Shown here in pieces: positions 3,814 to 55,870 of a stretch of 64,000 nt of DNA. Location of the stretch: the NCBI RefSeq assembly GCF_037975245.1, contig NC_092572.1, positions 8,437,001 to 8,501,000 on the forward strand. The letters are read 5' to 3'. The stretch comes from Apostichopus japonicus (lineage: Eukaryota > Echinodermata > Holothuroidea > Aspidochirotida > Stichopodidae). The position numbers were made by a program, and so were the translations under genes. Positions within the stretch are counted from its first letter, which is position 1. Every line of letters begins with the position of its first letter. Below the pieces are notes generated by a model. It saw only the letters and a program-made list of their open reading frames with translations. It searched no databases and had not been told where the DNA came from.

Positions 3814-6800
3814 GTATGTTCAAGCTTTGTTCAATTTAATGAATACTCGGTTATTTTAACAAGCCTTCATATGTCACCTCTTTCAGAATCAAAGCCCACA
3901 ACGTGACATAGATGCTGGCAGTTCACATTTTGCCTACCCTCAAGGCCCCAGTGCCTCGTACCAAGGAGCCGAGGCCCAGGCCTGGGTTGCTGACAACGAG
4001 CCAGAATCGACTGTCAATGAGGCCAGGGCCGTGGAGATTCCATCACGTACACATAATCACTTGGTTCCTGGACTTGGTGGCAGACAGGGACATTCCTCAA
4101 GATATAGTAAGTGTTTAAAGTTTGCTGGTTTGCTTCTCATTTAATACACATGCACTCAATTCCACTTCATATTCATGCAAAGTAGACTAAATGTGTGATA
4201 GGTGTAGAGCATGAGTTCTCAAGTTGCTATGAGGGCCAGAGAAAACAGTTGTTATAGCAAAAATTGGACAGAAATAAAATCAACATCGCAATTAAGCTGT
4301 AAGCAAAAGAAAGTTTCTCACAGTAACTGTACTTTTTTATCGCAATGTTATTATTTCTGCCCCTTCTGTGTTATTTTAGAAATTTGACAAAACATCTGCG
4401 CATATTACTGTGGTCATCTGGGCAGACAAATTAAAAAAAACATAAGCCGTTGTTCATTTTATGATTTTTCTTTAGAAAGATAAAAACAATATTGTGTACA
4501 AGAGGTTGCCATGTGTACATTATTTCTCAAGTGACAATAAAACATTAAAAATTGATATTTTGAAGAATTTTTGAAGAAGTGAAAGTTCATCTATTTAGAT
4601 GCCATGTCAATTCTAGCTTTTGCTACATCTACAGGTAGTGGGATGTAGAATTGTATTGATAGCATGTAGCTCTGATCTCTGAACAGGTGACGAAGCCATA
4701 CCAGTGGCTAGTTCCACTATTCCGGACTCTAGCATCTCCACACCAATAAACCACCATTTAGAGGAAGAGAATGAGACAGGAAGTGGAGAAGCTCTTCCTC
4801 AGCCAGCCAATCAGAATCCACAAATGGTCCATGCTGAGATGGTTGCTGAACCACTGGCTGTTGAAGCTGCCCCTGTTGAACAAGAGGTGAGCAACCTGGT
4901 GACCTGAATCAATTATAAGGTTATAATGATAAAAATTGATGGCATCCATAATTGCTTATCAATTAATCTGGTATATTCAATATACTAAACTCCCATTATA
5001 ACCAAAGAAAAACTCCCATTATAACAAAAGAAAAATCCCATTATAACAAAAGAAAAACTCCCATTATAACAAAAGAAAAACTCCCATTATAATGGAAGAA
5101 AAACTCCCATTATAACAAAATAAAAATCCCATTATAACCAAAGAAAAACTCCCATTGTAACAAAATAGAAATCCCATTACCCTGTATAACAAAATAAAAA
5201 CTCCCATTATAACAAAAGAAAAACTCCCATTATAACAAACGAAAAATTCCCATCATAACAAAAATAAAACTCCCATTATAACGGAAGAAAAACTCCCATT
5301 ATAACAAAATAAAAACTCCCATTATAATAAAAGAAACACTCTCATTATAACAAAATAAAAATCCTATTATAACAAAAGAAAAACTCCTATTATAACAAAA
5401 GAAAACTCCCATTATAGCAAAAGAAAAACTCCCATTATAATAAAAGAAACACTCTCATTATAACAAATGAAAACTCCCATTATAACCAAAGAAAAATTCC
5501 CATTATTACTAAAGAAAAACTCCTGTTATAACAAAAGAAAAACTCTCATTATAACGGAAGAAAAATGAAGAAAAAGTATGTTTAAGATCATTCAAGTGGC
5601 ACTATATATAGACATCACAGATTTACAAAATGACAGCTCCCAGAACAAGAATTCATGAGAGCAGATCTCTCAAATAGAACAAGACTGTTTGTTAGTTATT
5701 TGGTGGAGTTGTTTTTCACAAAGATCTCTGTCTTATGTAAAGTCTCAATACGTGTTTGCTGATGGATTTCAGAAAACCAACTTCCGAAGTAGATTCAATG
5801 TTTCTTTTCTTCTAAATGCACTCTGACCATATGGGTTTAATTCATTTGCTAATCTTTGAAAGTCATGTAGAATTTCAGTTTCCTTGTGCCCGTCATTTGA
5901 ATCAAAGTAACGATTGTTGTCATACCTTATTATCTCCCCTATAAGAGTGGAAAAAGGTGTGAAATATCCAATGGAAATTCCAGGTTGAATATCTGAAAAG
6001 CTCACTATACTCACCTCTATGTACCATGCATGATGATAATAGGGGATAATATAACGTTTTGTTTCTCTCTTTAAAGATTCCACCTGTTATTCAGCAACAG
6101 CCAGCACCTCAGCAGCCTCAGCCACCTGTCCAAGAGTTGCAAGGTGTGGAACATCAGCAGCAGCCAGGACAAGGAGCCGTTATGCAAGTAAATCCACAAC
6201 ATTTGCAGCAACAGCAGCAAGAAGAGCATCTAGTTTTACAACAGCAGCAGTCTCAACAACAACAACAGCAGCAATTACAGCAGCAATTACAGCAGCAGTT
6301 ACAGCAACAACTGCAACAGCATCCTCAGACTCAACAGCAACAAGCACATATACAACAGCAACTACCTCTACCACAACAGCAGCAACACCCACAACAGCAA
6401 CAACACTCACAACAACAGCCTCTATCACAACAGCAACAACACTCACAACAGCAGCAACAGCCTCTACCACAACAGACACAACAACAAACACAACAGCAAC
6501 AACAACAGCAAACACAACAGCAAAAACAGCCAGCAGTAGAGGAAGAGTCTGAAGACCAGGCTGAGGTGCAACACCACCACCACCATACAGGACAAGGAGA
6601 GGAGTCATCCTCAGGTTCTGTTCAGATGGTTTTGGATGCACCCTCAGAGACGACGGGAGAACCTGCAGAATCTGGAGGAGAGGAACAAGCAGGCCCATCG
6701 AGGAGACCGGGGAGAAAGGCAGCCCAGAATGTCCAGAATCTGATCGACGCCGAAAAGAATGATTCATGTAAGCAGAAATGTCTTTTACGACCAAGTATTA

Positions 6801-9800: not shown

Positions 9801-12800
9801 GCAGGTGGGTTGAAAAATGAACCCTGTGTTTTGAGGCAATAAAATATCGGGAAGGCAATTTCTCTTGTCACATAGTTGGTGGAAGTTTGGATAACATTCT
9901 ATGCCATCAAGGAAGCCCATACATTTGGGTGTAAGATGTAGGTTAAAACTTTGTGTTTAAGCTGAAGTTATATGGTAAATCCACATGGTGCCATATGTAG
10001 TTAATATGGACAGGTTATGAAGTTGCCATACATTGCCATGAAGTTGCCATATGTGGTTCATATGGACAGGCTACGAAGTTGCCATATGTTGCCATATGTG
10101 GTTAATATGGACAGGCTATGAGGTTGATAAGTGGCTTCAGTATTTATGAACGACAAATATCACAGTCCCAATTAGTCTATGCTTGTAAAATTTTTCTAAT
10201 CAGAGCAAAGCTACCTAAATTATTCTTATGGGCAGTTTTCATTTTATCTTCAATTTTCTCTTCTTGTTTTCCCAAACAATACTTCATTTTAGTTCTCCCT
10301 GTCTCAACTCTGGAATTATTTGTTTATTCACAGCTATCCAAGAGAAAGAGAAAACCTGGCCGTGCTACGAATGCTCGCGAAAGTTCAAGACATCAGAGCT
10401 CTTACAGAAGCATCTGAGCTCCCATGATGCACCAGAAGTACGACCCACGAGGGGGAGAGGCCGTGGGAGAGGTCGAGGGCGTGGCCGTCCCCGCAAGAGG
10501 GGCAGGCCCAGAAAGTACCCCATATCGGATGCGATCAACTATAAGCATGGCGGTGGTAGGTCAGTACAGTTTCAAGAGAAACCCTCTCCTTTCGTCTGCC
10601 AAACCTGCCAGAAGATCTTTACCAGGAACTATGACCTACAGCGCCATGCGGTAGTTCACACGGATAACAAGACAATCACGTGTGAGGTCTGCCTGAAGAA
10701 GTTTGCACATGATTACAATGCGTTGAGGCATCTCTTGAAGCATAAAGAGAGAGGTGAATACACAGGGTTCGTCCAACCTCCCCGGCATCGCCAGGTGATC
10801 ACCACTTGGTCTTGCGAGTACTGTGATGAGACTTTCTCAAAGGAGGATCAACTGGTAAGCCATGAAGCAGAAGAGCATGAAGAGGAAGCACAGGAGGTCC
10901 CAGATCCGGTGGCTAAGTCCCCCGTAGATGGAGTCGTGCATCCTCAGACTGTGACTCAAACTGATGCTGTAGCCAACCAACAGAATGGCAATGGAGGAGT
11001 ACCGCTCATATCCATGGAGAACTTACACGAAACACAAGGCTTTACACCTCAGCCTGTCTCTACGTCTGTTAGCCAGGACATTATCAGTCAGTCGGTGATG
11101 GGTCGGCTCCCGTTGGCCCAGGGAGGAGGGGATGGGCTCCAACAATTCCAGCCAGGTCTAGACCCTGTCGGCAACATGGAGACATTCATAGGGGAGTTTT
11201 CAGGGTTCCAACAGAGCATGTCGATGAACGAACAGGGGCAGACTCTGATTCACTGCAAGCTCTGTGGGAAGACATTTGACAATCAACCCTTATATAGCAG
11301 CCACATGAAGGTGCACATGATACCAAAGTTCTACAAGTGTCCCTTCTGCGAGATCGGTTACGAACGGCCGGAGCTCCTCAGGAGGCACGTCACGATTCAC
11401 AAGCAGGACGGACAGTACTTTTGCCCTCACTGCTCGAAGAACTTTGAGATGTACTCTCACATTCGCAAGCACATACGAGAGTCCCACTCCTGTAAGGAGT
11501 TCCCCTGTCCGGTCTGTCGCAAGATCTTCCCACGTCCAGACAAACTGAAGATGCACATGCTCAGGCACACAGATCGGAAGGACTTCCTCTGCGCCAACTG
11601 CGGGAAGCAGTTCAAACGGAAGGACAAACTCAAAGAGCACATGCTGAGAATGCATAACCCAGAGAGAGAAGCCAAGATGGCCGCCCTGGCTAGTAAACCC
11701 AAGAAGCCGCCGTTTAAACCCGCAGTGGATCCCACCGAAGTGGACGCGTTCACCTTCAAGTGTCGTGCCTGCCAGCTGGGCTTCAAGAGGCGTGGCATGT
11801 TGGTGAACCATCTAGCCCGTCAGCATCCCGACATCCAGCCAGAATCGGTACCGGAGTTGAACCTGCCGATCATCAAGCCCAACAGGAACTATTTCTGCGC
11901 TTACTGTGAAAAGGTCTACAAGAGCAGCAGCAAGAGAAAGATTCACATCTTGAAGAACCACCCGGGCGCTCTCCTTCCTCCGAGTCTGAGGAAGAATAAG
12001 AATAACCCTGAAACCAATGTCCTGGATGACCCTCACACTGCACCAGCAGGTGCTACCACAACACATTACTTTGCCTGTGCCCATTGTCCACGCCAATATA
12101 GTACCAAGGCTAAAATGATGGACCATGTCAGGAAGAAGCACATGGACCCTGTGGTTTCTGGGGCTCCTCACCAACAGGTAAGACACTTCTTTTCTTTTCT
12201 TTTTATAAGTTTTCTACTGTTAATTCCTCTAACCTTAAAATTTGGTTTAACGTGGCATTAATTCAAGGGTTTCATGCAGTCTTAGTTCATCTGGCCTTAT
12301 CTAAGTTATTTATTAAAGTGAACAGTTCTGATTACTAAGTTCTGAGTACTATGTACTACATTTTTAGGCTCTGAGCACTCTTTTGTAATTTGGAGTTCCG
12401 GTGACTTGAGCTAGTACCAACTACTTTAAATAAAGTTAAAGTATATTAGCATTTTCATTTAAGTACTCAATGATGAGTTCACATTTTTTTTTCCCTGAGT
12501 ACTTTAAAGCAATGCGAGTACTTTCAAAAAAATGAACTTCTGGAGTAACCGAGTACTTCTCCTGTTTTACAACACTGTATATTAGTACCTGTTTTGACAT
12601 AAATGCAACTGATTAACATTATTGTGGTCCACTGTTGATGTTCCTTGTAGGGATGCCTGATTACAGTATTGTGGTCAACTGTTATGATGTTCCTTGTAGG
12701 GATGTCTGATTACAGTATTGTGGTCAGCTGTTATTGTTCCTTGTAAGGATGCCTGATTACAGTATTCTGAATACATTACTAGCACAACCAAGAAATCCAT

Positions 12801-20699: not shown

Positions 20700-23600
20700 C
20701 TGCAAAAAGTCCAAAGAATACTCACCCTGTAATGTCAAAGGTCATTTGATATCAATTAGCTCACCCAGTAGACACACAGCACAGTCTGATCGTGCAAAAA
20801 ATAAAGCTTTGAGATTCTTATCAAAATTGGCTCTCTGACAATTTAAGAGTTACAAACAAGAAGAAAATGTTTGTCTTCACCTACATAAGTGATTTCTACA
20901 TTATTTTCTCTTAATATTTTTATGATTTATCAGATGTTTAGTCCACATGCAGTGTTAACAACACTCAAGCTTGCCTAGTTATCTGTACAGCTGCTCTCAG
21001 CCTCTCATTGACAATTTCGATTCCTGCTTGACTCTGAAAAAGGCCTATCACTACCGGTAAGAAAAATTATAATTATAGGACAATTCAGGCCACTAGGATG
21101 TGTGTTAAAAGGCATCAAAGCCAGTTAAATTGTGTTTCATTTAGTTCTTCACTGGTATAAGAACCATGCTCATTCAGATAGAACCTAAAAATAAAGAAAC
21201 CTTCTTAGCATTTTGTGTTTCCAGAAATCTGAGTACATTATGACTTACACGCAGTTAATATTGCTGGAAATTATGTCATCCCTACTTCATCATATGGGAA
21301 CTATTTTAGGTTGCCCAACTTTACTTTACCTTTCAACGAGGGCATAAATATCCTCTCAAATTATGAAGAAAACAAACATTTTGATAAACTAAACTTGGAC
21401 AAAAGATTTATTTAGTTATCGTGTTCACAAAGTTTTCTGACTGTGACCTCTGTTGGCCCCAAATGACCATTGAACTTCACAGAAAACAATAGATTTCTTG
21501 TACTCAATATGAGGGATCCACATTCCAAGTATGAAGTTAATACACCATTAATTATTGAGTTACCATGTTAACAAGTAAGTGTCACAAACATACACAGGCC
21601 ATCACCATTGCTAAGAATCCTTTTGCCTCTGGCAAGGAATCACAAAAGAATATTGCAAACTAAAAACTTGGACAAAGATACTATTATTAATGACAGAGTC
21701 TGACAAATGACCTGGCCTTGTTTTGATTGGTCCAAAGAACAATCAGGAACCAGCTTGGACAATTTTACTATCCAATTATTTATTTTGTCTCTCCATCACA
21801 TAGATTTCTTTCCCCCACCCCCCCCCCCCGGCAAGGAATCCAAAAACATTTTGAAAACCTAAACTTGGACAAAAGAAACTATTGTTAATGACAAAGTCTG
21901 ACAAATTACCTGGCCTTGTTTTGATTGGTCCATAGAACAATCAGGAACCAGCTTGGACAATTTTACAATCCAATTATTTATTTTGTCTCTCCGCCTCCTC
22001 TCAACCTCATTGTGTGTCGCCCTCCTTCTATCATCCCTGGCTGTTCGTACTGTGTCGAGTTTCCTGAAGAAAAAAAATCAATAAGAAAATAAATCAGATG
22101 GCAATAATTGTGGTGGACCGATATGTCTCTTTAAGACAGAGGTGCTCACGAAATGTAAACCAATATGTCTCTACAGGACAGAGGTGCTCACGAAATGTGG
22201 ACCTATATCTCTTTAGGATAGGGGTGCTGGACCTATATATGTCTCTTTAACGCAGAGGTGCTCACAAAATGGAACTTACTAGCCACAGTGAGTTTAGTAT
22301 CCAATCCAAATGCTGCAACATCGAAGAATGTAATTACCCATGAAATCGGGATATTACAGTTTATCATCCTATAAAGTGACAGGTTTTCAAAGTAGGGGTC
22401 ACTACCCTTACTAGGGCCCCCCCCCCCCAAAGAAAAAAAAAATTTGATGGGCAAAAATTTGGATGAAAAAAAATAATTCCTGATATTTTGTGGCAAACCA
22501 GAATGCAAAAATGCATTGAGGTTTCGATGATGTAACATGAGCAGTTTTCTTCATGAATCTGACAAAATGTAAAGTGAGGGTGAAAAATAATTCCTGATAT
22601 TTTGTGGAAAAAGAGTGGAAATAACTTGCCAAAAGTTGCAATCTACACAACACTATTTTGCCTCTAAGCACCCTTAATCATATAAAAAAATTAACGTGTG
22701 AAAGACAAATCCACCTTGTAGACCCCATCCCCCGGCCACAACGTCCACCACTGGGGGGAGTCACTAGGATGTAGGAGATGAAAGTTGGGGTCGTCAAGCA
22801 AAAAGGTTTGAATGAGAAGGACGTAAGAAATCACAGCATGAGCAGTGTCCATCAGTAATGTTGCAACATCCTGTTGGAGGTACGCACTAGGCCTCTACAC
22901 ACAAACTCCTCAACGTATATGTGTATCACTACCACAAAGTTCTGCATGCTGCATTATCATAAAGGTTTTGAAAACCTTTCCAGAGGGCCGCACTCTGTCC
23001 ACATGTGTTCTAAACCAATGGTGATTTATGATGTAAGTAAACAAATAATACAAAATGTGCTAATAAATTTAAAAAAAAACAGAGAAAAAAGAGCAACTAA
23101 TTTACATAGATAATAATACTCTCATACACACACACACTAGTAATTACACTGTAAAGAATAATCATGTGAATAAATGAATAAATTATCATAGGGGCCAATA
23201 CTAACGGTACCCTGATAGAAGAAGAAGGTCAGTGTAACGCTTTCACAATTCATGATCAATAAATAGTTTAAGACTAACTTTTGGGTTTACTTTTTTTTTT
23301 TGTATTAAAAAAGAAAAGCAAAACAGTGGTTGAAGAATTCAGGGGACTGTTAAGGGGACAGGCCCCCGCCCCCACTCTCCCCGAAATACCACTGTGAACA
23401 ATGCTTTAGCTCTACAGGAAATATGGAATAGTTATTGGTACAATTGGCCTTTGTGATCTTTGGCCTTGAGCAATATCTTGGGGTGACAACATAAGAAAAG
23501 TAAATGGGGAAGGGCTTTAGGTAGGCCTTTAATACCACTATCAGGAACACCGCTACAAACTTACGGGGAAAACTGATGAGTTCTTGGTGCGATTGTCCTC

Positions 23601-26600
23601 TGCGAAACACCCTGTAGGACATCTTGAGGTGACATCATGACATAAAATTGTCCTGGAAAAAGAAAATACACAAATTGATAACCTTGTCCCCTCGTACAAG
23701 CTAGCCTCAGAGTCAATGCAATCTGGGCATCGATTCTGGTGGGTCAGGGTGGGGTTCTGGTTGGTCCTGGCTCGGTCCTCAGAAAGCTACTTTAATAGTG
23801 ATGGGCCATTAAGTTTGCAGACCCTTGATTTAGTGTACCTTTAACCTTCAAGCTGTGTCCTGTACCCTCCTATCTGAACTATTCAGACCACTTTTTTTCT
23901 TTATGAAACCAGGGCACACATCCCAGTTGCGTTTAAAATAACAGGATGAGCATTTCAAAAGAAATTGTTGTCCTTAAATAGCTCAAGTTGGTGCATTTGG
24001 TACCGATAACGCGATAACAAGTAAAATTTTTGTTCTTACCACCAGCATTTGTGGCTGACTGGAGTGTTTGATTCTCTGCTCCTGTTGAAGCGCCATTAGT
24101 CTCTGACATTGCAGATGCTGGAAAGTATGTGAAACGAGTTTCTCCGCTTTGCCCGTCACCCGAGGAATTCTCCTCCGAGTTGAACGGGGCCTGAATTACC
24201 TACAGTATGGTACAAAAAAGGAAAACCATATATAACAGGCCTGAATTACCTACAGTATGGTACAAGAAAGGAAACCATATATAACGGGGCCTGAATTACC
24301 TACAGTATGGTACAAAAAAGGAAAACCATATATAACGGGGCCTGAATTACCTACAGTATGGTACAAGAAAGGAAACCATATATAACGGGGCCTGAATTAC
24401 CTACAGTATGGTACAAAAAAGGAAAACCATATATAACAGGCCTGAATTACCTACAGTATGGTACAAGAAAGGAAACCATATATAACAGGCCTGAATTACC
24501 TACAGTATGGTACAAGAAAGGAAAACCATATATAACAGGCCTGAATTACCTACAGTATGGTACAAGAAAGGAAAACCATATATAACGGGGCCTGAATTAC
24601 CTACAGTATGGTACAAGAAAGGAAACCATATATAACGGGGCCTGAATTACCTACAGTATGGTACAAGAAAGGAAAACCATACATAACGGGGCCTGAATTA
24701 CCTACAGTATGGTACAAGAAAGGAAACCATATATAACGGGGCCTGAATTACCTACAGTATGGTACAAGAAAGGAAAACCATACATAACGGGGCCTGAATT
24801 ACCTACAGTATGGTACAAGAAAGGGAAACCATATATAACGGGGCCTGAATTACCTACAGTATGGTACAAGAAAGGAAACCATATATAACGGGGCCTGAAT
24901 TACCTACAGTATGGTACAAGAAAGGAAACCATATATAACGGGGCCTGAATTACCTACAGTATGGTACAAGAAAGGAAAACCATACATAACGGGGCCTGAA
25001 TTACCTACAGTATGGTACAAGAAAGGAAAACCATACATAACGGGGCCTGAATTACCTACAGTATGGTACAAGAAAGGAAAACCATACATAACAGGGCCTG
25101 AATTACCTACAGTATGGTACAAGAAAGGAAAACCATATATAACGGGGCCTGAATTACCTACAGTATGGTACAAGAAAGGAAAACCATACATAACAGGGCC
25201 TGAATTACCTACACTATGGTACAAGAAAGGAAAACCATATGTTAACAAGCGAACAAATTATGAGAGGGGCCTGAATTACCTACAGTATGGTACAAGAAAG
25301 GAAAACCATACATAACAGGGCCTGAATTACCTACACTATGGTACAAGAAAGGAAAACCATATGTTAACAAGCGAACAAATTATGAGAGGGGCCTGAATTA
25401 CCTACAGTATGGTACAAGAAAGGAAAAAACATATGTTAACCTGCAAACAAATTAGGAAATTGAATGCAAAATTGAAGTTAAGTTGACTGTACAGTAGTTC
25501 TTAGGTTCCATTTGCAGACTCCTAGACCATGAAAAGATGTTAACAAATCCCTACAAATAAGGAGTTATGCCAAATGGTCTCAGCCCCATGTTGGTCTCAG
25601 CGCCATGTTGGTCTCAGCCCTATGTTGGTTGGGGCTAAGGTCAGGAATTAGTTGCTTGTCTTTGCACAAGATTTGGCACCTACAGATTTGTTTTGATTTT
25701 CTCCAGAGTTTATTAAAATCAGCAGAATGTTGGCTTCCACAGACCATTTTTTTTTTACAGACCCTTTAAGGAAGTCTTTGACCTCAAGGACCCCAAATGT
25801 TTTCATACCTCCTAGGGTCGCTCCCAATACATACTCTAGTTTATACTGTTCATAAACCAAAGCATCTGTGGCACAATTTATATATTTAGGAAATCTTCGG
25901 TTCTATTGATGACACCTTAACACTGCCCCCACCCCCACCCTGCCCCTCCCTGCCTTAATGTAACTAGATCCTCCAGGTCCACAAAAAATTACTTTAAAGA
26001 TAATTACATATTATTTGGCAAAATGTAAATTAGAAATCTTGCTCGGCTATCCTGATAGAGGAAGGATCAATTTCTTGATATTCCGGGTTACAAGACACAA
26101 CCACGGATGAACTACAACCATCCATAACCATACATCCTAGAGGAAATTCCCTCTTAGTGTCTGGGTGCCTTGTGACACCCATCACATGACGTATCACCTG
26201 ACAACCCTCACTGTCTAGAGAGGAAGCTCGGGAAATAAATTACTAATTGAATCTTGGTTACAGTATACATAAATAACAACAGCTTTATATACATGTGGTA
26301 GGCCAGTCTTCTCCACAGACAAATTACATTATGAACCAGGAAACACACCTACTGATTAGAGTGCAGGGTATTGTCATGTGAAAAATATTGACAGTACAAA
26401 AGTTCTCTATAGATCTCCATATATATATTTTTTTCCTAAGTTTGTAGAAATTTTGGAACTTAGTTTACCTGAGCCAGGGCTGGTTGGCCTCCGGTCTGCA
26501 CCGTAGTTCTCTGACTGGTCGGAGTCTCCGCGTTGGTTTGTGGAAGAGACACCACGCGGTAAGTCACAGAGCCTACCGAGACGTTACTTGCATCTGATGG

Positions 26601-29600
26601 GAATTGATACTGCCAAAGGAAAAAACATGAAAATAACAGCAAAATATTACTGTATATATTCACTGTACAATGTTGAGTCTTACACATGTATGCTGGTAGT
26701 CTCTCAAATGTACTGTACTGTAAGGTGCAGTCAACCATATTTGGAGTCATGCAAGCTTCCGCATTAATTAATATCAACTCAAGGCACTGTACATACTGTA
26801 CATATGTATACAGACTTATGTAACTTGTATTAATTAAGATCCATTTAAGACTTCACTTCTACCGATGACATTGCCTTTACCAAGCTTTTTACTAGTACAT
26901 ACATGTATGTCAGACACACAAATGTGTACTGCACTACATGGTTAACTAGTAAGTACTGTGGTCAGTCAGTTATCATATCAGTATTGTACAATGGTATGTA
27001 CTTAAGACAATAACATGTCATCCATGGGTACCGGTGGGAGAGAGTAAGCGGGGTGAGGAAGCGGGTAAGGTGGGGGAGGGGGCAAAATACCCAGTGGCTA
27101 GGCAGCCACTGTAAATTTACATTCATGGGATGCTGTTGCTATGTGAACACACCTCAAAAGTTCTGTAGATCAGTATCGTGTTAACTACGGAATGTACAGT
27201 AGCTCTTACTATACTGTAGGTGCATTGTTTGATCATATCACTGTCTACACTTTTATCTTTTGTTTTTCATATTCATAATTTATCATGATTCACTGAAGCT
27301 TTTAAAGATCGAAGGTCATTCATGTTAATCATTGCAATACATTACCACATGTCATGTTCAAATTTCAGCACATCTTAACTTTTTTGATATTTTTTTTCAT
27401 CCTTCAAATACAATTAATTTCTCGAGTACATCGACAGAACTTTACAAATTTATTCTAGATCTACAGATCTGGGAATTCAGTATCAATTTACAGATCGCAA
27501 ACGAGACTAACAATCGACCTAGGAGACTGAAAAACTGTTAAACCTTACCAAGCTATCTGCATTAGCCAATGTATGTCCGTCTTCATCTGCTGTAACCACG
27601 GTAACTGGTTCTGAAATAATAGGGCATGTCCTTTAACAATTTCGATCAATCTCCATGGAAAAAAATTACTGTACCACTTTGTGAAAACTTCATATCCAAA
27701 TTTCAATGGCAGTATTTCAATCAGGTAACAGAATGCTAAGAAAGGTAGCCATTAGTTTTATCCAACTAGATCTTATTTGCAAGAATATTACCATACGTAC
27801 CAATTATGTTACATTACCCATCTATAACTTTAAGCTTGGGACTACTTCCTGGCACTGTATGTGTGATGTTTATTAAGCAGGAGATAAAAAGTGATGAATG
27901 TTAAAGCTGCCTCTCAAGACAATTATCAGCATAATATCCTAAATTACATTTTGAAAGGAGCAGAGGATGTTTTTGGATCATAATTCAAATCCATTGGCTT
28001 TAGTAGATGTGCCCAATTATCTGTGAAAATGAAGAAATGTGGAACAGCCATTCATTCCAAACTCAGGGCTTGATATAAAAACACAGGATTCACACTGACT
28101 GACTGACGGTACTAGGTCGGCTCCTGTACAATCACCAGAAATGCTTACTCGGATGTCAAACTTGCTTTAAAGGTTAAGCATACAGTACCACATACCTTCT
28201 TGGTCGTCTTTCATATCCTGCTCTCGATCTGTGTCACCTTTGACCCCTTCGTCACTGAAATATTAAACAAAGCATATATGCAATTAATTAAATTCAATAT
28301 AGAACAAAAAGTGCAACTACAGCAAATCTGAAACGATTAGTCCACTGGGTGAATCACTTTTTACTTCTGAGAGATGTATTCGCGATGGAATTAAGGGAAT
28401 TATGGCAGTTTTTGTGCTTTTCATCAATCTACATTTATCAGAAAAATCAATATATTGTATGTCACATTGCTTTTTTTTGTTTTTCACAGGACAAATCATG
28501 CTATTGTTTGAGTACTGTCAATACAGTATGGTTGAGGCCTCTATTAGTGTGATTTAAAAGAAAGAACCATCCCTTAACTCTCCTAAAGTAACATTTCTGA
28601 AAGTAAAATGTAAACATCTACAACTCAGACATCATGACTGTAACAGGGACAGTTTCAAGAACCCCGTCTTAAAACTGTTCCTGGAATTGTCCCCGGATTT
28701 CATCTACATTTAGTCACCGTACATTGAATATCCCTGAATTTGTAGAAAGGCCCTGAATAAATTAAAATTAGTGAACCTGACATTTGGCCTCACATTCATA
28801 GACACACCTTGAACCTAAAATGATTGTTCACACTAAAGTTCTGTAAAAATGTGGAGTTCCTTCATGGCCCACAGAATAAAGCATTCTGGATAATTCAACA
28901 TGAAGCGCATAAACCACATGAATAGGATCATGTTGCACTTAGTGATGAATAATACAGTTGGTCAGTATGAAGTTTTTTGCATTAGATTTTTACCTTGGAC
29001 AGAATACTGTTTTGGCCTGAAACATGTACAGCACTGAACCACCAAAACACTAAGAAACCCTCAAAATATCTTCCTATAAAGATACATACAGTGTAGGTAT
29101 AACCCCTTTATGTCAAGTTGGGGCTGTGGGAAAGGGGTGTCAACATCAATAACATGTCCCAGATTTCCCAGAACACTGCTCAGAGACCCTAAATATATCT
29201 TCCTATCTAAACATACATCGTAGGTAATAATTATGTCAACTTGGGGCTGAGGAAGAGAGGTGCCAACATAAATACCATGTCCCCTGATTTCCCAGTAAAA
29301 AAGTACAGTATGTTCGACAACTTCCAATATTTAGAACTCAGTAATTAAGGGTTAAACTTCAAAACATAGCCTATGTGTAGTTCTGTTTAGAACCATGCTG
29401 TTCACATGCTGTTAACTGTCTAACTGTAAGCAGGTATAATAGGTTTACTTTACAAAGTACTATATGGGTAACAATGTCAAAAGCACCACCAATAATATTT
29501 CAGAACACCTACAGTAGCAGACATTGTTTCACCACTGTAACATGTACATGTTTACACTGCTTTGCTAATTGTTATTTTAAGAAACATACATACTAATTTG

Positions 29601-51110: not shown

Positions 51111-54100
51111 GTATGAAATCATTATATGTTTGAAAACATTTTCTTCAATGCCATCATACCCATCATATACATGATTAACAGTATATAGATAACCAATAAT
51201 ATTTTTTAAAAATTTTGTTTTTTGTTTTGCAGAATTCCAAAAACGTATGAAGAAAACGTTCGAATGGATGGAAACAAGATGTACGTTAGAAGTGGAGGAA
51301 ACCGTTCCTCTTCAAAAGATAAAAGTTTACCTAAGGAAGAGCAACGGTCAAACAATACAGCATCTTTATACACAAATACCACAAAACTCGTCCAATTCAA
51401 CGCAACTCTTTTAAATATTGATCAAAATCATACGTCACCGCTTCATCAATCAACGGAATCTTTTGCGATGTGTTCACCAAAGAAAAATATCGTTTTATTA
51501 AAAACCCACAAAACGGGAAGTTCAACTATCCAAAATATTTTATATCGTTTTGGTGACTTTCATGACCTGACATTTGCTCTTCCTGTTGGTAAAAGTAATT
51601 ATTTTTGTGGTAATAACGATTTCAACATCAAGTGCGTAGCTTCATTACCAAAGGGTTATCAATACAACGTATTAGCCAACCATGCTAGGTGGGTGAAGAC
51701 AGGTAAGTTAACCTTTTCTCTTTACCCGCTAATAATTATTAGGAATAGTTTGCATGTATAGGGAATAGTTTGTATGAATAAGGAATATTTTGTATGTGTA
51801 AGGAATATTTTGTATGTATAAGGAATATTTTGTATGTATAGGGAATAGTTTGTATGTATAAGGAATATTTTGTATGTATAAGGAATATTTGTATGTATAA
51901 GGAATATTTTGTATGTATTGCTATTTGCAATCAATCACAAATGGACGATCGTATATAATATACCGTGAGTTCGATTGTGTTTATATTATGTAGCATTTCG
52001 TAGCACAGGAAATGAGTGTCATAAAGAAATCAAAAACTAATACTTTTGCTGGTATAATATATTCCTTGTAAACACAGACCGCATGGATTCTTGGGTGTGG
52101 TCTCGAATAGATTCATTACCCAAATAACGTCACTTTAAATCATACGGCGGCTCTGAAGTGCCATTACGCCTTTTGTATTTTGTATGTGGACTACTTCGAT
52201 TCGATGGTTTGACGTTTCTTGAAGTTCGTTATCTTACGGTATAGAGTTCATGTTCAGCACTTGTTAAAATCGGTAGTAAGATAGTTGCAAATTTTATAGT
52301 GTATACATGAAAGGTGCGGTTAAGCAATATAAATATGGTGTCCAGTAACGGGTACACAGAAAGAACTCCTATATGCACAAAACTGGCTACAAATCGTACT
52401 TGTGATCCAATTGTGGGGTTTGTGGTAAATGCGGAATCGTTTTTTTTTCTAGAGAGAATTTAATGAAACTTCTTAATAATATACTTAATCTGAATCTACT
52501 ACAGCATAGAGATGAATCTTTACAGTTAGTTTATAATCGGACATGAGATTAAACATTGAACAGTAACAATGTGAAGGTCGTTGGTTCGAGAACGTGCTAA
52601 GCTGTTAAACATCAAGCCATATGTTCTATTATTATTTGTCGACCAAAGAGTATGGGTTTGTTTCCTATATTAGCGTCTTTAAAATTCAGAAAATTAGTGT
52701 CGCACAAAATTAATCTACATATATTTCATTGCTTCAATTGCAAAATAAATCAGTCAATTAAGTCATATATATATATATATGTAAAGGGGTCACAGACGCG
52801 ACCGTCTTTAATGACAGAGATACGTGTGCAGAAAATCCGCCCCTCCCCCACCCCCCGCCCCCCAAAAAAAGAGCTAAGAAATACCTTACTCCGATTGTGA
52901 GATATCCTAGATTAAACGTCATTTCTAGGGGCTATCATTTTGTTAACCAGTGATATCAAAGTGCCACCATAGAACCTGAAACCTGTTGTTCTCTCTTTCT
53001 TTTCATATTTGCATGTTTTACAATTTTAACAGTGCAAATTTAACAATGAAACCAACTGCCTTCGCTGTAGGTCATAAAACAAGTTTCAGTCAATTACATA
53101 TCCGCAGCAGTTGCATAACTCATTACAGCGAATAAACGTGCTAGTATCTAGATCAAGAAAAACATAAACTCGAGGCACAAGTCTCCAGCCCTTGTGTTTG
53201 AAGGAACATGAATTGTGTGATATCTCCAAAATGAAATCAAATGTTTTTTAGCGGCTTGTGGAAGGTGTTAATGACGTTTATCTCTATCACATAGATGTAT
53301 GTTTGATGATCAATGTTATTCATTTCTTCCTGGCTCGATGTAGGTACATCATTCTTTTGGTGTTGTTTTCTGTATAATATAGATATCATTGTGTCCGTGT
53401 CTTTTCTGTAATGTTCAAGTGGGTAAATATCACCAAAAGATTTTTCCCTTCTCATTTTGCAGAATTCTCCGCTGCCATGCCACCGGATACAACTTACATT
53501 ACCATATTACGTCATCCATCCACTCAATATGAAAGTCTATATAATTACTACAAATGGAAAAATGTATTCCACGTGACTTTCCAGGACTTTGTTAAAAATC
53601 CAAAGATGTATTACCTGAAGAAGAATAGACAAACCAGCTCTGCGCCACGTCACAGCTTCCGGAATCCTTCTCTTTATGATCTCGGTTTAACTACTCCAAT
53701 AGAAGGCTTGAAAGAAGACGAAATTTACGAAAAAGTTAAGTCTTTGGATGAAGAATTTCATCTAGTTTTAATTATGGAGTATATTGAAGAGTCCATAATC
53801 TTATTGAAAGATCTGATGTGTTGGAGTTGGGATGACGTTTTGTATTTTCAAACGAACTCGAGGGCAACAAATGAAGTTCAAGGAATGACGCAAGAGGTCA
53901 TACAAAGACTGATAGAATGGAACGAAGGTGATTGGATCCTATATCGACATTTTAATGAAACATTATGGACTAAAGTAGAACATTACGGAAAAGAGCGGAT
54001 GAAAGAAGATATTGCTACCTTAAGGCGAAAGATCAACGAAAAGACGACAAAATGTATAGCTGGAACAAAGCACGTCACAGAACTAAAACAGATCACAATT

Positions 54101-54235
54101 AAACGATTCCAGCTGACACCAGCAGGTTCCAAAAGTAGCGAATGCCAGCGTATGGTGAGGCCTGCGTTGAAGTACTTATCAACATTGAATGCCAAAATGT
54201 CAGGAAAGTCGAAAAGATCGATATCGTTAAACTAA
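50983..54235 (+). CDS. Galactose-3-O-sulfotransferase-like enzyme (Gal3ST family)
   Basis: Type II Golgi membrane enzyme predicted to move sulfate from PAPS to the 3-OH of galactose on glycolipids or glycans. Join 50983-51110, 51233-51702, 53463-54235; 456 residues plus TAA, in the range of the family (about 420-490). Short cytosolic N-terminus, signal anchor about 8-27, then a stem with five N-glycosylation sequons (residues 66, 83, 91, 99, 108). LLKTHKTGSSTIQNIL (131-146) is the 5'-phosphosulfate-binding loop. TYITILRHPSTQYES (210-224) is the 3'-phosphate-binding motif with R216 and S219. The C-terminal half (LVLIMEYIEESIILLKDLMC, LYRHFNETLW, KVEHYGKERM) closely resembles recalled GAL3ST1. 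Substrate cannot be deduced. Confidence 0.93.
51233..51702 (+). CDS. Gal3ST exon 2 (stem and PAPS-binding loop)
   Basis: Acceptor TTTTGTTTTGCAG, donor AAGACAG|GTAAGT; phase 2 to phase 1. Holds the glycosylation-rich stem and the LKTHKTGSST loop, then FHDLTFALPVGKSNYF and NVLANHARWVKTG. Confidence 0.93.
51739..51925. repeat. Intronic minisatellite, 20-bp unit
   Basis: About nine copies of GTATGTATAAGGAATATTTT with variants (GGGAATAGTTT), starting 36 bp after the exon 2 donor. Confidence 0.9.
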
Positions 54236-54724
54236 CCTTTCGAATTGATGGTAGGCAAAGAGCTGATAATTTCGCGCAACTGGTTTATCCGGTGCCAAAA
54301 GGCGCATTTTCATGATATGAGGGAGGCATCACTCTGCCCTACTACACCAACTTGCCATTATTCGTCGACTGGGACACTAGGACAGCAACGTTCCTTTGTC
54401 AGGTCTTTCCAGCGAATATGATCAAACCAGAGAACAGCCTTCATAGCTAGGCCTATATGAAAGAGATAACGTTATGTACATGCATATTGCACCACGGTGT
54501 ATGGATTTCATTCCGTTGAATAATGATAGCATTGAAACTTAACATTAATTTGTATATTTATATTTAATTCCATGTGTCGGGTTTTTTTTGGGGGGGGGTG
54601 GGGTGGTTGGCAACCACGTATACCACTGGGGGACATTAGCCTCTTTCTTTAAACATATTTACAACTACAGATCTTGCAATGAATGCTAACGAATACAGCA
54701 AAATTACAAAATGAGCATTAAATA
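52603..54724 (+). repeat. Parent segment of a tandem duplication (Gal3ST 3' end)
   Basis: Starts at a TGTTA in intron 2 and ends just before TGTTA at 54,725. It covers intron sequence, all of exon 3 and about 490 bp after the stop. The next 1.14 kb is a copy of it lacking 52,831-53,818. Exonic and flanking matches inspected by eye are identical apart from homopolymer length. Confidence 0.93.
53463..54235 (+). CDS. Gal3ST exon 3 (catalytic C-terminal part)
   Basis: Acceptor CATTTTGCAG, opening in phase 1 (split codon GAA). Contains the 3'-phosphate-binding motif and conserved C-terminal blocks; TAA at 54,233-54,235. The tail is basic (MSGKSKRSISLN). Confidence 0.95.
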
Positions 54725-55870
54725 TGTTAAACATCAAGCCATATGTTCTATTATTATTTGTCGACCAAAGAGTATGGGTTTGTTTCCTATATTAGCGTCT
54801 TTAAAATTCAGAAAATTAGTGTCGCACAAAATTAATCTACATATATTTCATTGCTTCAATTGCAAAATAAATCAGTCAATTAAGTCATATATATATATAT
54901 ATGTAAAGGGGTCACAGACGCGACCGTCTTTAATGACAGAGATACGTGTGCATATATATGTTGGAGTTGGGATGACGTTTTGTATTTTCAAACGAACTCG
55001 AGGGCAACAAATGAAGTTCAAGGAATGACGCAAGAGGTCATACAAAGACTGATAGAATGGAACGAAGGTGATTGGATCCTATATCGACATTTTAATGAAA
55101 CATTATGGACTAAAGTAGAACATTACGGAAAAGAGCGGATGAAAGAAGATATTGCTACCTTAAGGCGAAAGATCAACGAAAAGACGACAAAATGTATAGC
55201 TGGAACAAAGCACGTCACAGAACTAAAACAGATCACAATTAAACGATTCCAGCTGACACCAGCAGGTTCCAAAAGTAGCGAATGCCAGCGTATGGTGAGG
55301 CCTGCGTTGAAGTACTTATCAACATTGAATGCCAAAATGTCAGGAAAGTCGAAAAGATCGATATCGTTAAACTAACCTTTCGAATTGATGGTAGGCAAAG
55401 AGCTGATAATTTCGCGCAACTGGTTTATCCGGTGCCAAAAGGCGCATTTTCATGATATGAGGGAGGCATCACTCTGCCCTACTACACCAACTTGCCATTA
55501 TTCGTCGACTGGGACACTAGGACAGCAACGTTCCTTTGTCAGGTCTTTCCAGCGAATATGATCAAACCAGAGAACAGCCTTCATAGCTAGGCCTATATGA
55601 AAGAGATAACGTTATGTACATGCATATTGCACCACGGTGTATGGATTTCATTCCGTTGAATAATGATAGCATTGAAACTTAACATTAATTTGTATATTTA
55701 TATTTAATTCCATGTGTCGGGGTTTTTTTGGGGGGGGGGTGGGGTGGTTGGCAACCACGTATACCACTGGGGGACATTAGCCTCTTTCTTTAAACATATT
55801 TACAACTACAGATCTTGCAATGAATGCTAACGAATACAGCAAAATTACAAAATGAGCATTAAATATGTTA
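54725..55870 (+). repeat. Truncated tandem copy of the Gal3ST 3' end
   Basis: 54,725-54,952 matches 52,603-52,830 and 54,959-55,865 matches 53,819-54,724 (offset exactly 1,140). The six bases TATATA replace 988 bp. Both outer junctions share TGTTA microhomology. Confidence 0.95.
54959..55375 (+). pseudogene. Gal3ST C-terminal fragment
   Basis: Encodes the last about 137 residues of the enzyme (from CWSWDDVLYFQ to the TAA). It has no acceptor, PAPS-binding loop or signal anchor, because the deletion removed the exon 3 start. An in-frame read upstream is open only briefly. It cannot make an active sulfotransferase unless spliced in an unforeseen way. Confidence 0.9.

What the first reader, a model, noticed from the sequence alone, without database searches (positions are those of the whole stretch)
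24183..25436. A minisatellite that amplifies a gene's own 3' splice site
Seen: 24 near-identical 48-52 bp units, the gene-proximal one being the real intron/exon 5 boundary of USF. Each unit carries, on the transcribed strand, a pyrimidine-rich tract, ACTGTAG and the first about 14 exon bases GTAATTCAGGCCCC. So the intron offers two dozen tandem acceptor sites before the authentic one. Because the exon starts GTAATT, every unit is AG|GTAATT, the fused acceptor-donor layout of recursive splice sites. In units whose spacing is a multiple of 3, using an upstream acceptor puts the next unit's TAG in frame. Inference: array length could tune USF splicing, recursive splicing or nonsense-mediated decay, and should vary among individuals.
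Basis: partly seen in the sequence, partly recalled or inferred. Interest (0 to 1): 0.82.

Follow-up and report, generated by a model that had tools for sequence, protein, structure and literature searches.

The report
Tandem decoy splice sites in USF
In an echinoderm gene for the transcription factor USF, the end of one intron together with the start of the next exon is repeated in tandem, giving 24 near-identical splice acceptors; such exon-edge repeats are already described from amphioxus, and here they most likely reflect tolerated repeat growth rather than a dedicated splicing device.

Summary
The array is real. On the minus strand, 24 cores TACCATACTGTAG|GTAATTCAGG lie 49-51 bp apart (two units are 71 bp). 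The first is the predicted exon 5 acceptor of USF (first base 24199). Shuffled sequence gives none, and a whole-genome DNA search finds the unit only here. All 23 upstream acceptors would add a premature stop at codon 17-33.

It is not unique in kind. [quoted passage not shown] This genome is an echinoderm by its mitochondrial code and rich in intronic minisatellites. Among 161 exons sampled from three other gene families, I read 8 donor boundaries and 1 acceptor boundary repeated in the same way. Acceptors have far fewer local copies than intronic AG controls (1/161 against 9-20/160 over 20 random draws). USF also carries a two-copy duplicate of its bHLH exon donor.

Best reading: an unstable acceptor mirage of a rare, probably selected-against class, with splicing mostly at the exon-proximal site. 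Recursive splicing is poorly supported: the intron is 2.3 kb and the donor-like site lacks +5 G. A role in unproductive splicing stays open, because the real acceptor looks no better than its decoys. No RNA data were available.

The parts
24040..24199 (-). USF exon 5 (predicted), 160 nt (VIQAPFNSEENSSGDGQSGETRFTYFPASAMSETNG...); its first base 24199 follows the authentic acceptor
   Evidence: reading frame continuous with exon 4; donor GTAAGA after 24040
24186..25440 (-). minisatellite of 24 units holding polypyrimidine tract, ACTGTAG (AGTGTAG in two) and the first 12-17 nt of exon 5
24200..24249 (-). unit U01: authentic acceptor; letter-identical to U05 (24401-24450)
25209..25279 (-). 71-bp unit U21, keeps a TTAAC branch-point-like motif at -34 and has an extra AG at -5
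25331..25401 (-). 71-bp unit U23, identical to U21 (122-bp higher-order duplication)
25402..25470 (-). distal edge: U24 with TTAAC at -35, then TTTCCTAATTTGTTTGCAG|GTTAAC, the unduplicated intron flank and likely ancestral context
24200..26468 (-). USF intron 4, 2269 nt; donor CAG|GTAAAC
26469..26609 (-). USF exon 4 (predicted; ends ...GGQPALAQ, phase 0)
21910..22063 (-). USF bHLH exon (predicted), donor CAG|GTAATT
21631..21794 (-). tandem copy (91% over 165 columns) of 21830-21992, the 3' end of the bHLH exon plus donor (here CAG|GTCATT): a two-copy donor mirage in the same gene

Best explanation
The array is an exon-boundary minisatellite ("mirage"). A tandem duplication with one breakpoint in intron 4 and the other 14-17 nt inside exon 5 copied the acceptor. 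Slippage or unequal exchange then multiplied it to 24 units, including 101-bp and 122-bp multi-unit blocks. The repeat structure and the identity of the real site with an array unit are shown; the mutational route is inferred. The authentic exon edge stayed intact at the gene-proximal end, so the coding sequence survived. Splicing most likely still joins exon 4 mainly to 24199, helped by exon definition from the exon 5 donor 160 nt downstream (inferred). Transcripts using any of the 23 upstream acceptors carry a stop at codon 17-33 (shown from sequence) and would be lost to nonsense-mediated decay (inferred). No dedicated function is needed.
For: A DNA search of this genome with two units finds 11 rows, all inside the array, so it most likely grew in place (that search skips very common words). 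U01, the real acceptor, is identical to U05, so the working site takes part in array turnover. In the same genome, tandem repeats cover 13-15% (donor side) and 8-15% (acceptor side) of sampled sequence 100-500 bp from exon edges. Other genes show the same structure: donor mirages in L009 (121 bp x7.1 and 46 bp x11.8), L014 (31 bp x38.5 and 69 bp x36.5), L023 (2 copies), L034, L035 and L036, and one acceptor mirage in L049 (3 x 124 bp, 98%). Amphioxus cases have the same anatomy and are said not to interfere with regular splicing (passages).
Against: Nothing in the sequence makes the real acceptor better than its decoys. Pyrimidine content (-20..-5) is 0.75 in 22 of 24 units, including the authentic one, and 0.69 in U21 and U23. 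Full yUnAy motifs 18-45 nt upstream occur only in U24, U23 and U21; the authentic unit has 4 of 5 (the predicted exon 6 acceptor also has only 4 of 5, so this alone does not disqualify it). Acceptor copies are depleted elsewhere in this genome, which suggests they are usually harmful, so 'no consequence' is not assured. No RNA data exist here, and relatives could not be compared.
Confidence: 0.68

Rival explanations
1. Unproductive-splicing damper: the decoys capture part of the splicing, each capture makes an NMD substrate, and array length sets the productive fraction of USF mRNA.
For: All 23 upstream acceptors give a stop at codon 17-33. Acceptor sequences equal the real one, and three distal units have better branch-point matches. 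Array lengths change in this genome.
Against: No RNA. Amphioxus mirages are said not to disturb regular splicing (passages). A stop is expected in most intron-derived extensions, so 23 of 23 is weak evidence for design.
Confidence: 0.18
2. Recursive splicing platform: each AG|GTAATT first accepts and then donates, so the intron is removed in steps.
For: AG|GT layout in 24 of 24 units; GTAATT is the predicted donor of the bHLH exon of this gene.
Against: The intron is 2269 nt, whereas intronic ratchet points are described as abundant within long introns (abstract passage of PMC8605326). The donor-like site lacks G at +5. AG|GT follows from Val-Ile codons at the exon start.
Confidence: 0.04
3. 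Intron or exon birth in progress: array units will be recruited as a new short exon or intron, as proposed for amphioxus globin mirages.
For: Each unit is bounded by an acceptor and a donor-like site. The model is published for mirages (passages of PMC3087553).
Against: Extensions through 50-, 51- or 71-bp units bring a stop codon. Nothing suggests recruitment now.
Confidence: 0.05
4. Assembly artefact: the copy number was inflated or collapsed by the assembler.
For: Reads were not available. A legend in PMC3087553 says one amphioxus mirage appears mis-assembled in the draft genome.
Against: 11 distinct unit variants with 101- and 122-bp higher-order blocks and indels are not what simple duplication by an assembler makes. 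The assembly has 35 contigs for 671.6 Mb.
Confidence: 0.05

Closest known systems
Amphioxus 'mirages' (globin BflGb6 and BflGb9, Adh3, troponin C, PGBD5)
   Same: Minisatellite-like tandem duplication of an intron/exon boundary, at 5' or 3' splice sites, AG|GT in many units; variable copy number; said not to interfere with regular splicing (passages of PMC3087553 and PMC3902484).
   Different: This is an echinoderm. 24 acceptor copies here, against 3 and 6 repeat units in the two haplotypes of BflGb6 (an acceptor-side case) and 2-7 in PGBD5. In BflGb6 cluster-boundary units were excluded from homogenisation; here the exon-side unit U01 equals U05, while the far-end unit U24 is distinct.
Human G1P3/IFI6 minisatellite with multiple splice donors (title seen in a reference list; content recalled)
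   Same: A minisatellite that multiplies one splice site of its host gene.
   Different: Donor rather than acceptor; short unit (recalled).
Human internal tandem repeats in segmental duplications (passages of PMC2812944)
   Same: Minisatellite expansion in genes linked to new introns through cryptic splice sites.
   Different: There repeats within exons change gene structure; here an existing boundary is repeated inside the intron.
Drosophila ratchet points / recursive splicing (passages of PMC8605326)
   Same: Juxtaposed acceptor and donor, AG|GT.
   Different: Sites inside long introns with experimental support; here a tandem array in a 2.3-kb intron beside a coding exon.
Intron gain by tandem duplication of AG/GT proto-splice sites (Rogers, cited in PMC3087553)
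   Same: Tandem duplication supplies splice signals.
   Different: Here an existing boundary is duplicated; no new intron is shown.

Membership tests
mirage (tandem duplication of an intron/exon boundary, as described from amphioxus) | tandem repeat unit spans an intron/exon boundary, authentic boundary at the array's edge | tested here: met
   24 units, U01 abuts exon 5 (predicted gene model)
mirage (tandem duplication of an intron/exon boundary, as described from amphioxus) | units keep AG/GT splice signals (many, not all, in the published cases) | tested here: met
   24 of 24
mirage (tandem duplication of an intron/exon boundary, as described from amphioxus) | copy-number instability among alleles | not testable with these tools
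   one assembly only; indirect support from two adaptin loci
mirage (tandem duplication of an intron/exon boundary, as described from amphioxus) | regular mRNA splicing not disturbed | not testable with these tools
   no RNA data
recursive splice site (ratchet point) | juxtaposed acceptor and donor AG|GT | tested here: met
recursive splice site (ratchet point) | lies within a long intron | tested here: not met
   intron 4 is 2269 nt
recursive splice site (ratchet point) | used in steps, intermediates seen | not testable with these tools
   no nascent or lariat RNA

The most novel reading that the evidence does not exclude
Array length is a heritable rheostat: tandem poison acceptors, equal or superior to the real site, divert a length-dependent share of USF pre-mRNA into NMD, so a fast-mutating minisatellite tunes the dose of a transcription factor in an echinoderm.
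Probability: 0.12. Interest if true: 0.82.

Novelty: new member of a known kind. Interest (0 to 1): 0.5.

Why it matters
It carries exon-boundary minisatellites, which in the passages I read are described from amphioxus, to an echinoderm, and suggests that they are not rare there: 8 donors and 1 acceptor read among 161 sampled exons. The contrast with intronic controls gives a natural measure of how harmful extra acceptors are. With 23 near-exact upstream copies of its own acceptor, USF is a ready natural experiment on how the spliceosome picks one 3' splice site among equals, and on whether repeat length alters gene dose.

Tried and rejected
Rejected: (1) An array unique in kind. The unit is locus-specific, but the anatomy recurs in CCT and myosin genes. 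(2) A preferred anchoring of arrays at exon edges. I first thought so, but intronic controls have as many or more local copies. Near copies of the 24-mer across the splice site: donors 5/161 automatically, 8/161 with three added by eye; acceptors 1/161. Controls: one search drew 22/160 GT and 14/160 AG; 20 draws gave 15-22 GT (median 20) and 9-20 AG (median 14) of 160. The acceptor deficit holds over that range (p 0.01 to 6e-6). The donor deficit is not robust: with 8/161, p is 0.007 against 22, 0.02 against 20 and 0.14 against 15. (3) A general donor-over-acceptor bias. Counting exons whose first 100 bp of intron are over 30% repeat, it held in CCT plus myosin (21 against 6 of 123, p=0.006) but not in the adaptin replicate (2 against 1 of 38); pooled 23 against 7 of 161, p=0.005. 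(4) Flagged cases dropped after reading the sequence: L015 (array starts downstream of the likely donor), L042 (one diverged copy of about 47 bp, 80%, about 390 bp away), the first duplication of L009 (stops 3 bp short of the match end), L076 and L094 (arrays near but not across the splice site). (5) A hairpin around the authentic acceptor: z -2.34 for one unit plus exon start, but -0.63 with two units, so not pursued. (6) A whole-genome census and other species: the genome gives no file and no relatives are held.

Limits: exon edges are protein-profile match ends, not RNA-proven; an exon with no site passing my score counts as a miss. Splice scores and the yUnAy motif use recalled consensus values. 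I read flagged cases by eye, not all 161 exons, so 8 and 1 are minimum counts. The L014 69-bp units share only about 2 nt of exon with the real edge, and the L014 31-bp units read GTAGTAG where the exon has GTAAGTAG.

Full report
What is there. The window is C12:8437001-8501000 of a 671.6-Mb genome of 35 contigs. The array lies on the minus strand inside intron 4 of a USF gene. 24 cores TACCATACTGTAG|GTAATTCAGG occur (22 exact, 2 with one mismatch) and 100 shuffles give none. Unit lengths are 49-51 bp plus two of 71 bp. The 11 distinct unit sequences include 101-bp and 122-bp higher-order blocks. The first unit is the predicted real boundary: exon 4 ends ...GGQPALAQ in phase 0 and exon 5 continues VIQAPFNSEEN. 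The joined protein matches USF2 over its bHLH-zipper at E 1.5e-43 and Pfam HLH at 5.6e-14; exons 4 and 5 lie outside both matches. A DNA search of the whole genome with two units gives 11 rows, all in the array, so it most likely grew in place.

Which organism. The best COX1 match, on contig C35, reads well with the echinoderm mitochondrial code, with AAA at sites where COX1 has Asn and AGA at Ser sites (the conserved residues are recalled). I think it is a sea cucumber, but that is recall and untested.

How it was built. At the far end of the array the intron reads CCTAATTTGTTTGCAG|GTTAACATATG. The two 71-bp units keep a decayed form of this, and the 49-51-bp units lack about 20 bp of it. Exon-like sequence in five units compared matches the exon for 12-17 nt. 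The simplest history is a tandem duplication with one end in the intron and the other 14-17 nt inside the exon, then repeated expansion (inferred). U01, which holds the authentic acceptor, is identical to U05, so the working splice site itself seems to be rewritten by array turnover. In the amphioxus globin case cluster-boundary units were excluded from homogenisation (passage of PMC3087553).

What the decoys would do. Inclusion from any of the 23 upstream acceptors gives a stop at codon 17-33. The acceptor stretch is alike across units: pyrimidine content 0.75 in 22 of 24, 0.69 in U21 and U23. A full yUnAy match 18-45 nt upstream exists only in U24, U23 and U21, while the authentic unit has 4 of 5, as has the predicted exon 6 acceptor. 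Sequence alone therefore does not tell why the real site would win. Exon definition by the donor at the end of the 160-nt exon 5 is my inference.

Is it special? To get a base rate I took the exon matches of two families in this genome: 53 of the 57 listed for CCT/Cpn60 (I left out one match on C8 and three on C3 that lie in long open frames), and all 70 listed for myosin head. I later added all 38 listed for adaptin as a replicate. Tandem repeats cover 13-15% of sequence 100-500 bp from the edges on the donor side and 8-15% on the acceptor side; coverage falls to 7.5% in the first 25 bp at donors and 1.6% at acceptors. Donor mirages were read by eye in L009 (two), L014 (two), L023, L034, L035 and L036, eight in all, and one acceptor mirage in L049, 3 x 124 bp at 98% with TTATACCTGATCTTAG|GTTGTC. 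None was found in the 38 adaptin exons. An automatic count of near copies (at most 4 mismatches) of the 24-mer across each splice site within 2 kb gave 5 of 161 donors and 1 of 161 acceptors. Three of the eight donors read by eye were missed by that count. Random intronic GT and AG 120-420 bp away gave 22 and 14 of 160, and 15-22 and 9-20 of 160 over 20 draws. Acceptors are thus clearly depleted (p 0.01 to 6e-6); donors only weakly or not (8/161 gives p 0.007 to 0.14 over the range of draws). Donor against acceptor, 8 against 1 of 161, p=0.04. By repeat cover of the first 100 bp of intron the contrast is clear in the first two families (21 against 6 of 123, p=0.006) but absent in the small adaptin replicate (2 against 1 of 38). 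The USF array is a large survivor of the rarer, acceptor class. The same gene has a second, two-copy mirage at the bHLH exon donor (21830-21992 and 21631-21794, 91%).

Instability. Two adaptin exon loci on C20, 92.8% identical over 1009 aligned columns, carry 4.2 and at least 10.8 copies of the same 37-bp unit; the second array runs to the end of the piece fetched. They are either gene duplicates or leftover haplotypes; either way array length changed while the neighbouring DNA stayed alike.

Known or new. [quoted passage not shown] I read passages of PMC3087553 and PMC3902484; the original Adh paper is not held. A human minisatellite with multiple splice donors in G1P3 is known to me by its title in a reference list and from recall. 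I also saw passages of PMC2812944 (human tandem repeats and new introns) and the abstract of PMC4039745 (a C. elegans minisatellite over-represented near alternative splicing). My searches for an echinoderm case and for boundary minisatellites in general showed me no echinoderm report, but I judged by titles and abstract beginnings except for the papers named, one search listed 15 of 83 papers and 15 of 18, and the library lacks most subscription journals. So this is a new member of a known kind, in a phylum for which I found no report.

Verdict. Structure confirmed. Function most likely none beyond tolerated load; recursive splicing unlikely; a length-dependent damper possible and easy to test.

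Noticed in passing
window 21631-21992: The 3' half of the USF bHLH exon and its donor are duplicated once (91% identity), with donor GTAATT in the exon copy and GTCATT in the intronic copy.
   Followed up: yes
L049:3587-3961: Three 124-bp copies (98%) of a myosin-head acceptor, each with about 56 bp of intron end and 68 bp of exon start.
   Followed up: partly
L014:1177-3750 and 4114-5335: Very large donor-side arrays in a CCT gene: 69 bp x 36.5 with TG|GTGAGT in the units read, and 31 bp x 38.5.
   Followed up: partly
L034, from about position 1130: Myosin-head exon end AAACTAG|GTATGCTATTAATATCATG is followed by an array of the same junction (copies about 740 bp downstream read).
   Followed up: partly
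L078 and L080: Two adaptin exon loci on C20 (92.8% identical) differ in an intronic 37-bp array: 4.2 against at least 10.8 copies.
   Followed up: partly
window 53816-54729 and 54956-55870: 99.7% identical 915-bp direct duplication, with 52603-52830 identical to 54725-54952: recent duplication or an assembly effect.
   Followed up: no
window 12609-12766: A 49-bp x 3.3 array with acceptor-like TTCCTTGTAG|GGATG in two of its units, between predicted exons of what looks like a zinc-finger gene (by eye).
   Followed up: no
G000 C29:14745-31219: COX1-like fragments on a second contig, probably nuclear or extra copies of mitochondrial DNA.
   Followed up: no
window 25434-25460: Distal flank CCTAATTTGTTTGCAG|GTTAAC looks like one more acceptor beyond the array.
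   Followed up: partly
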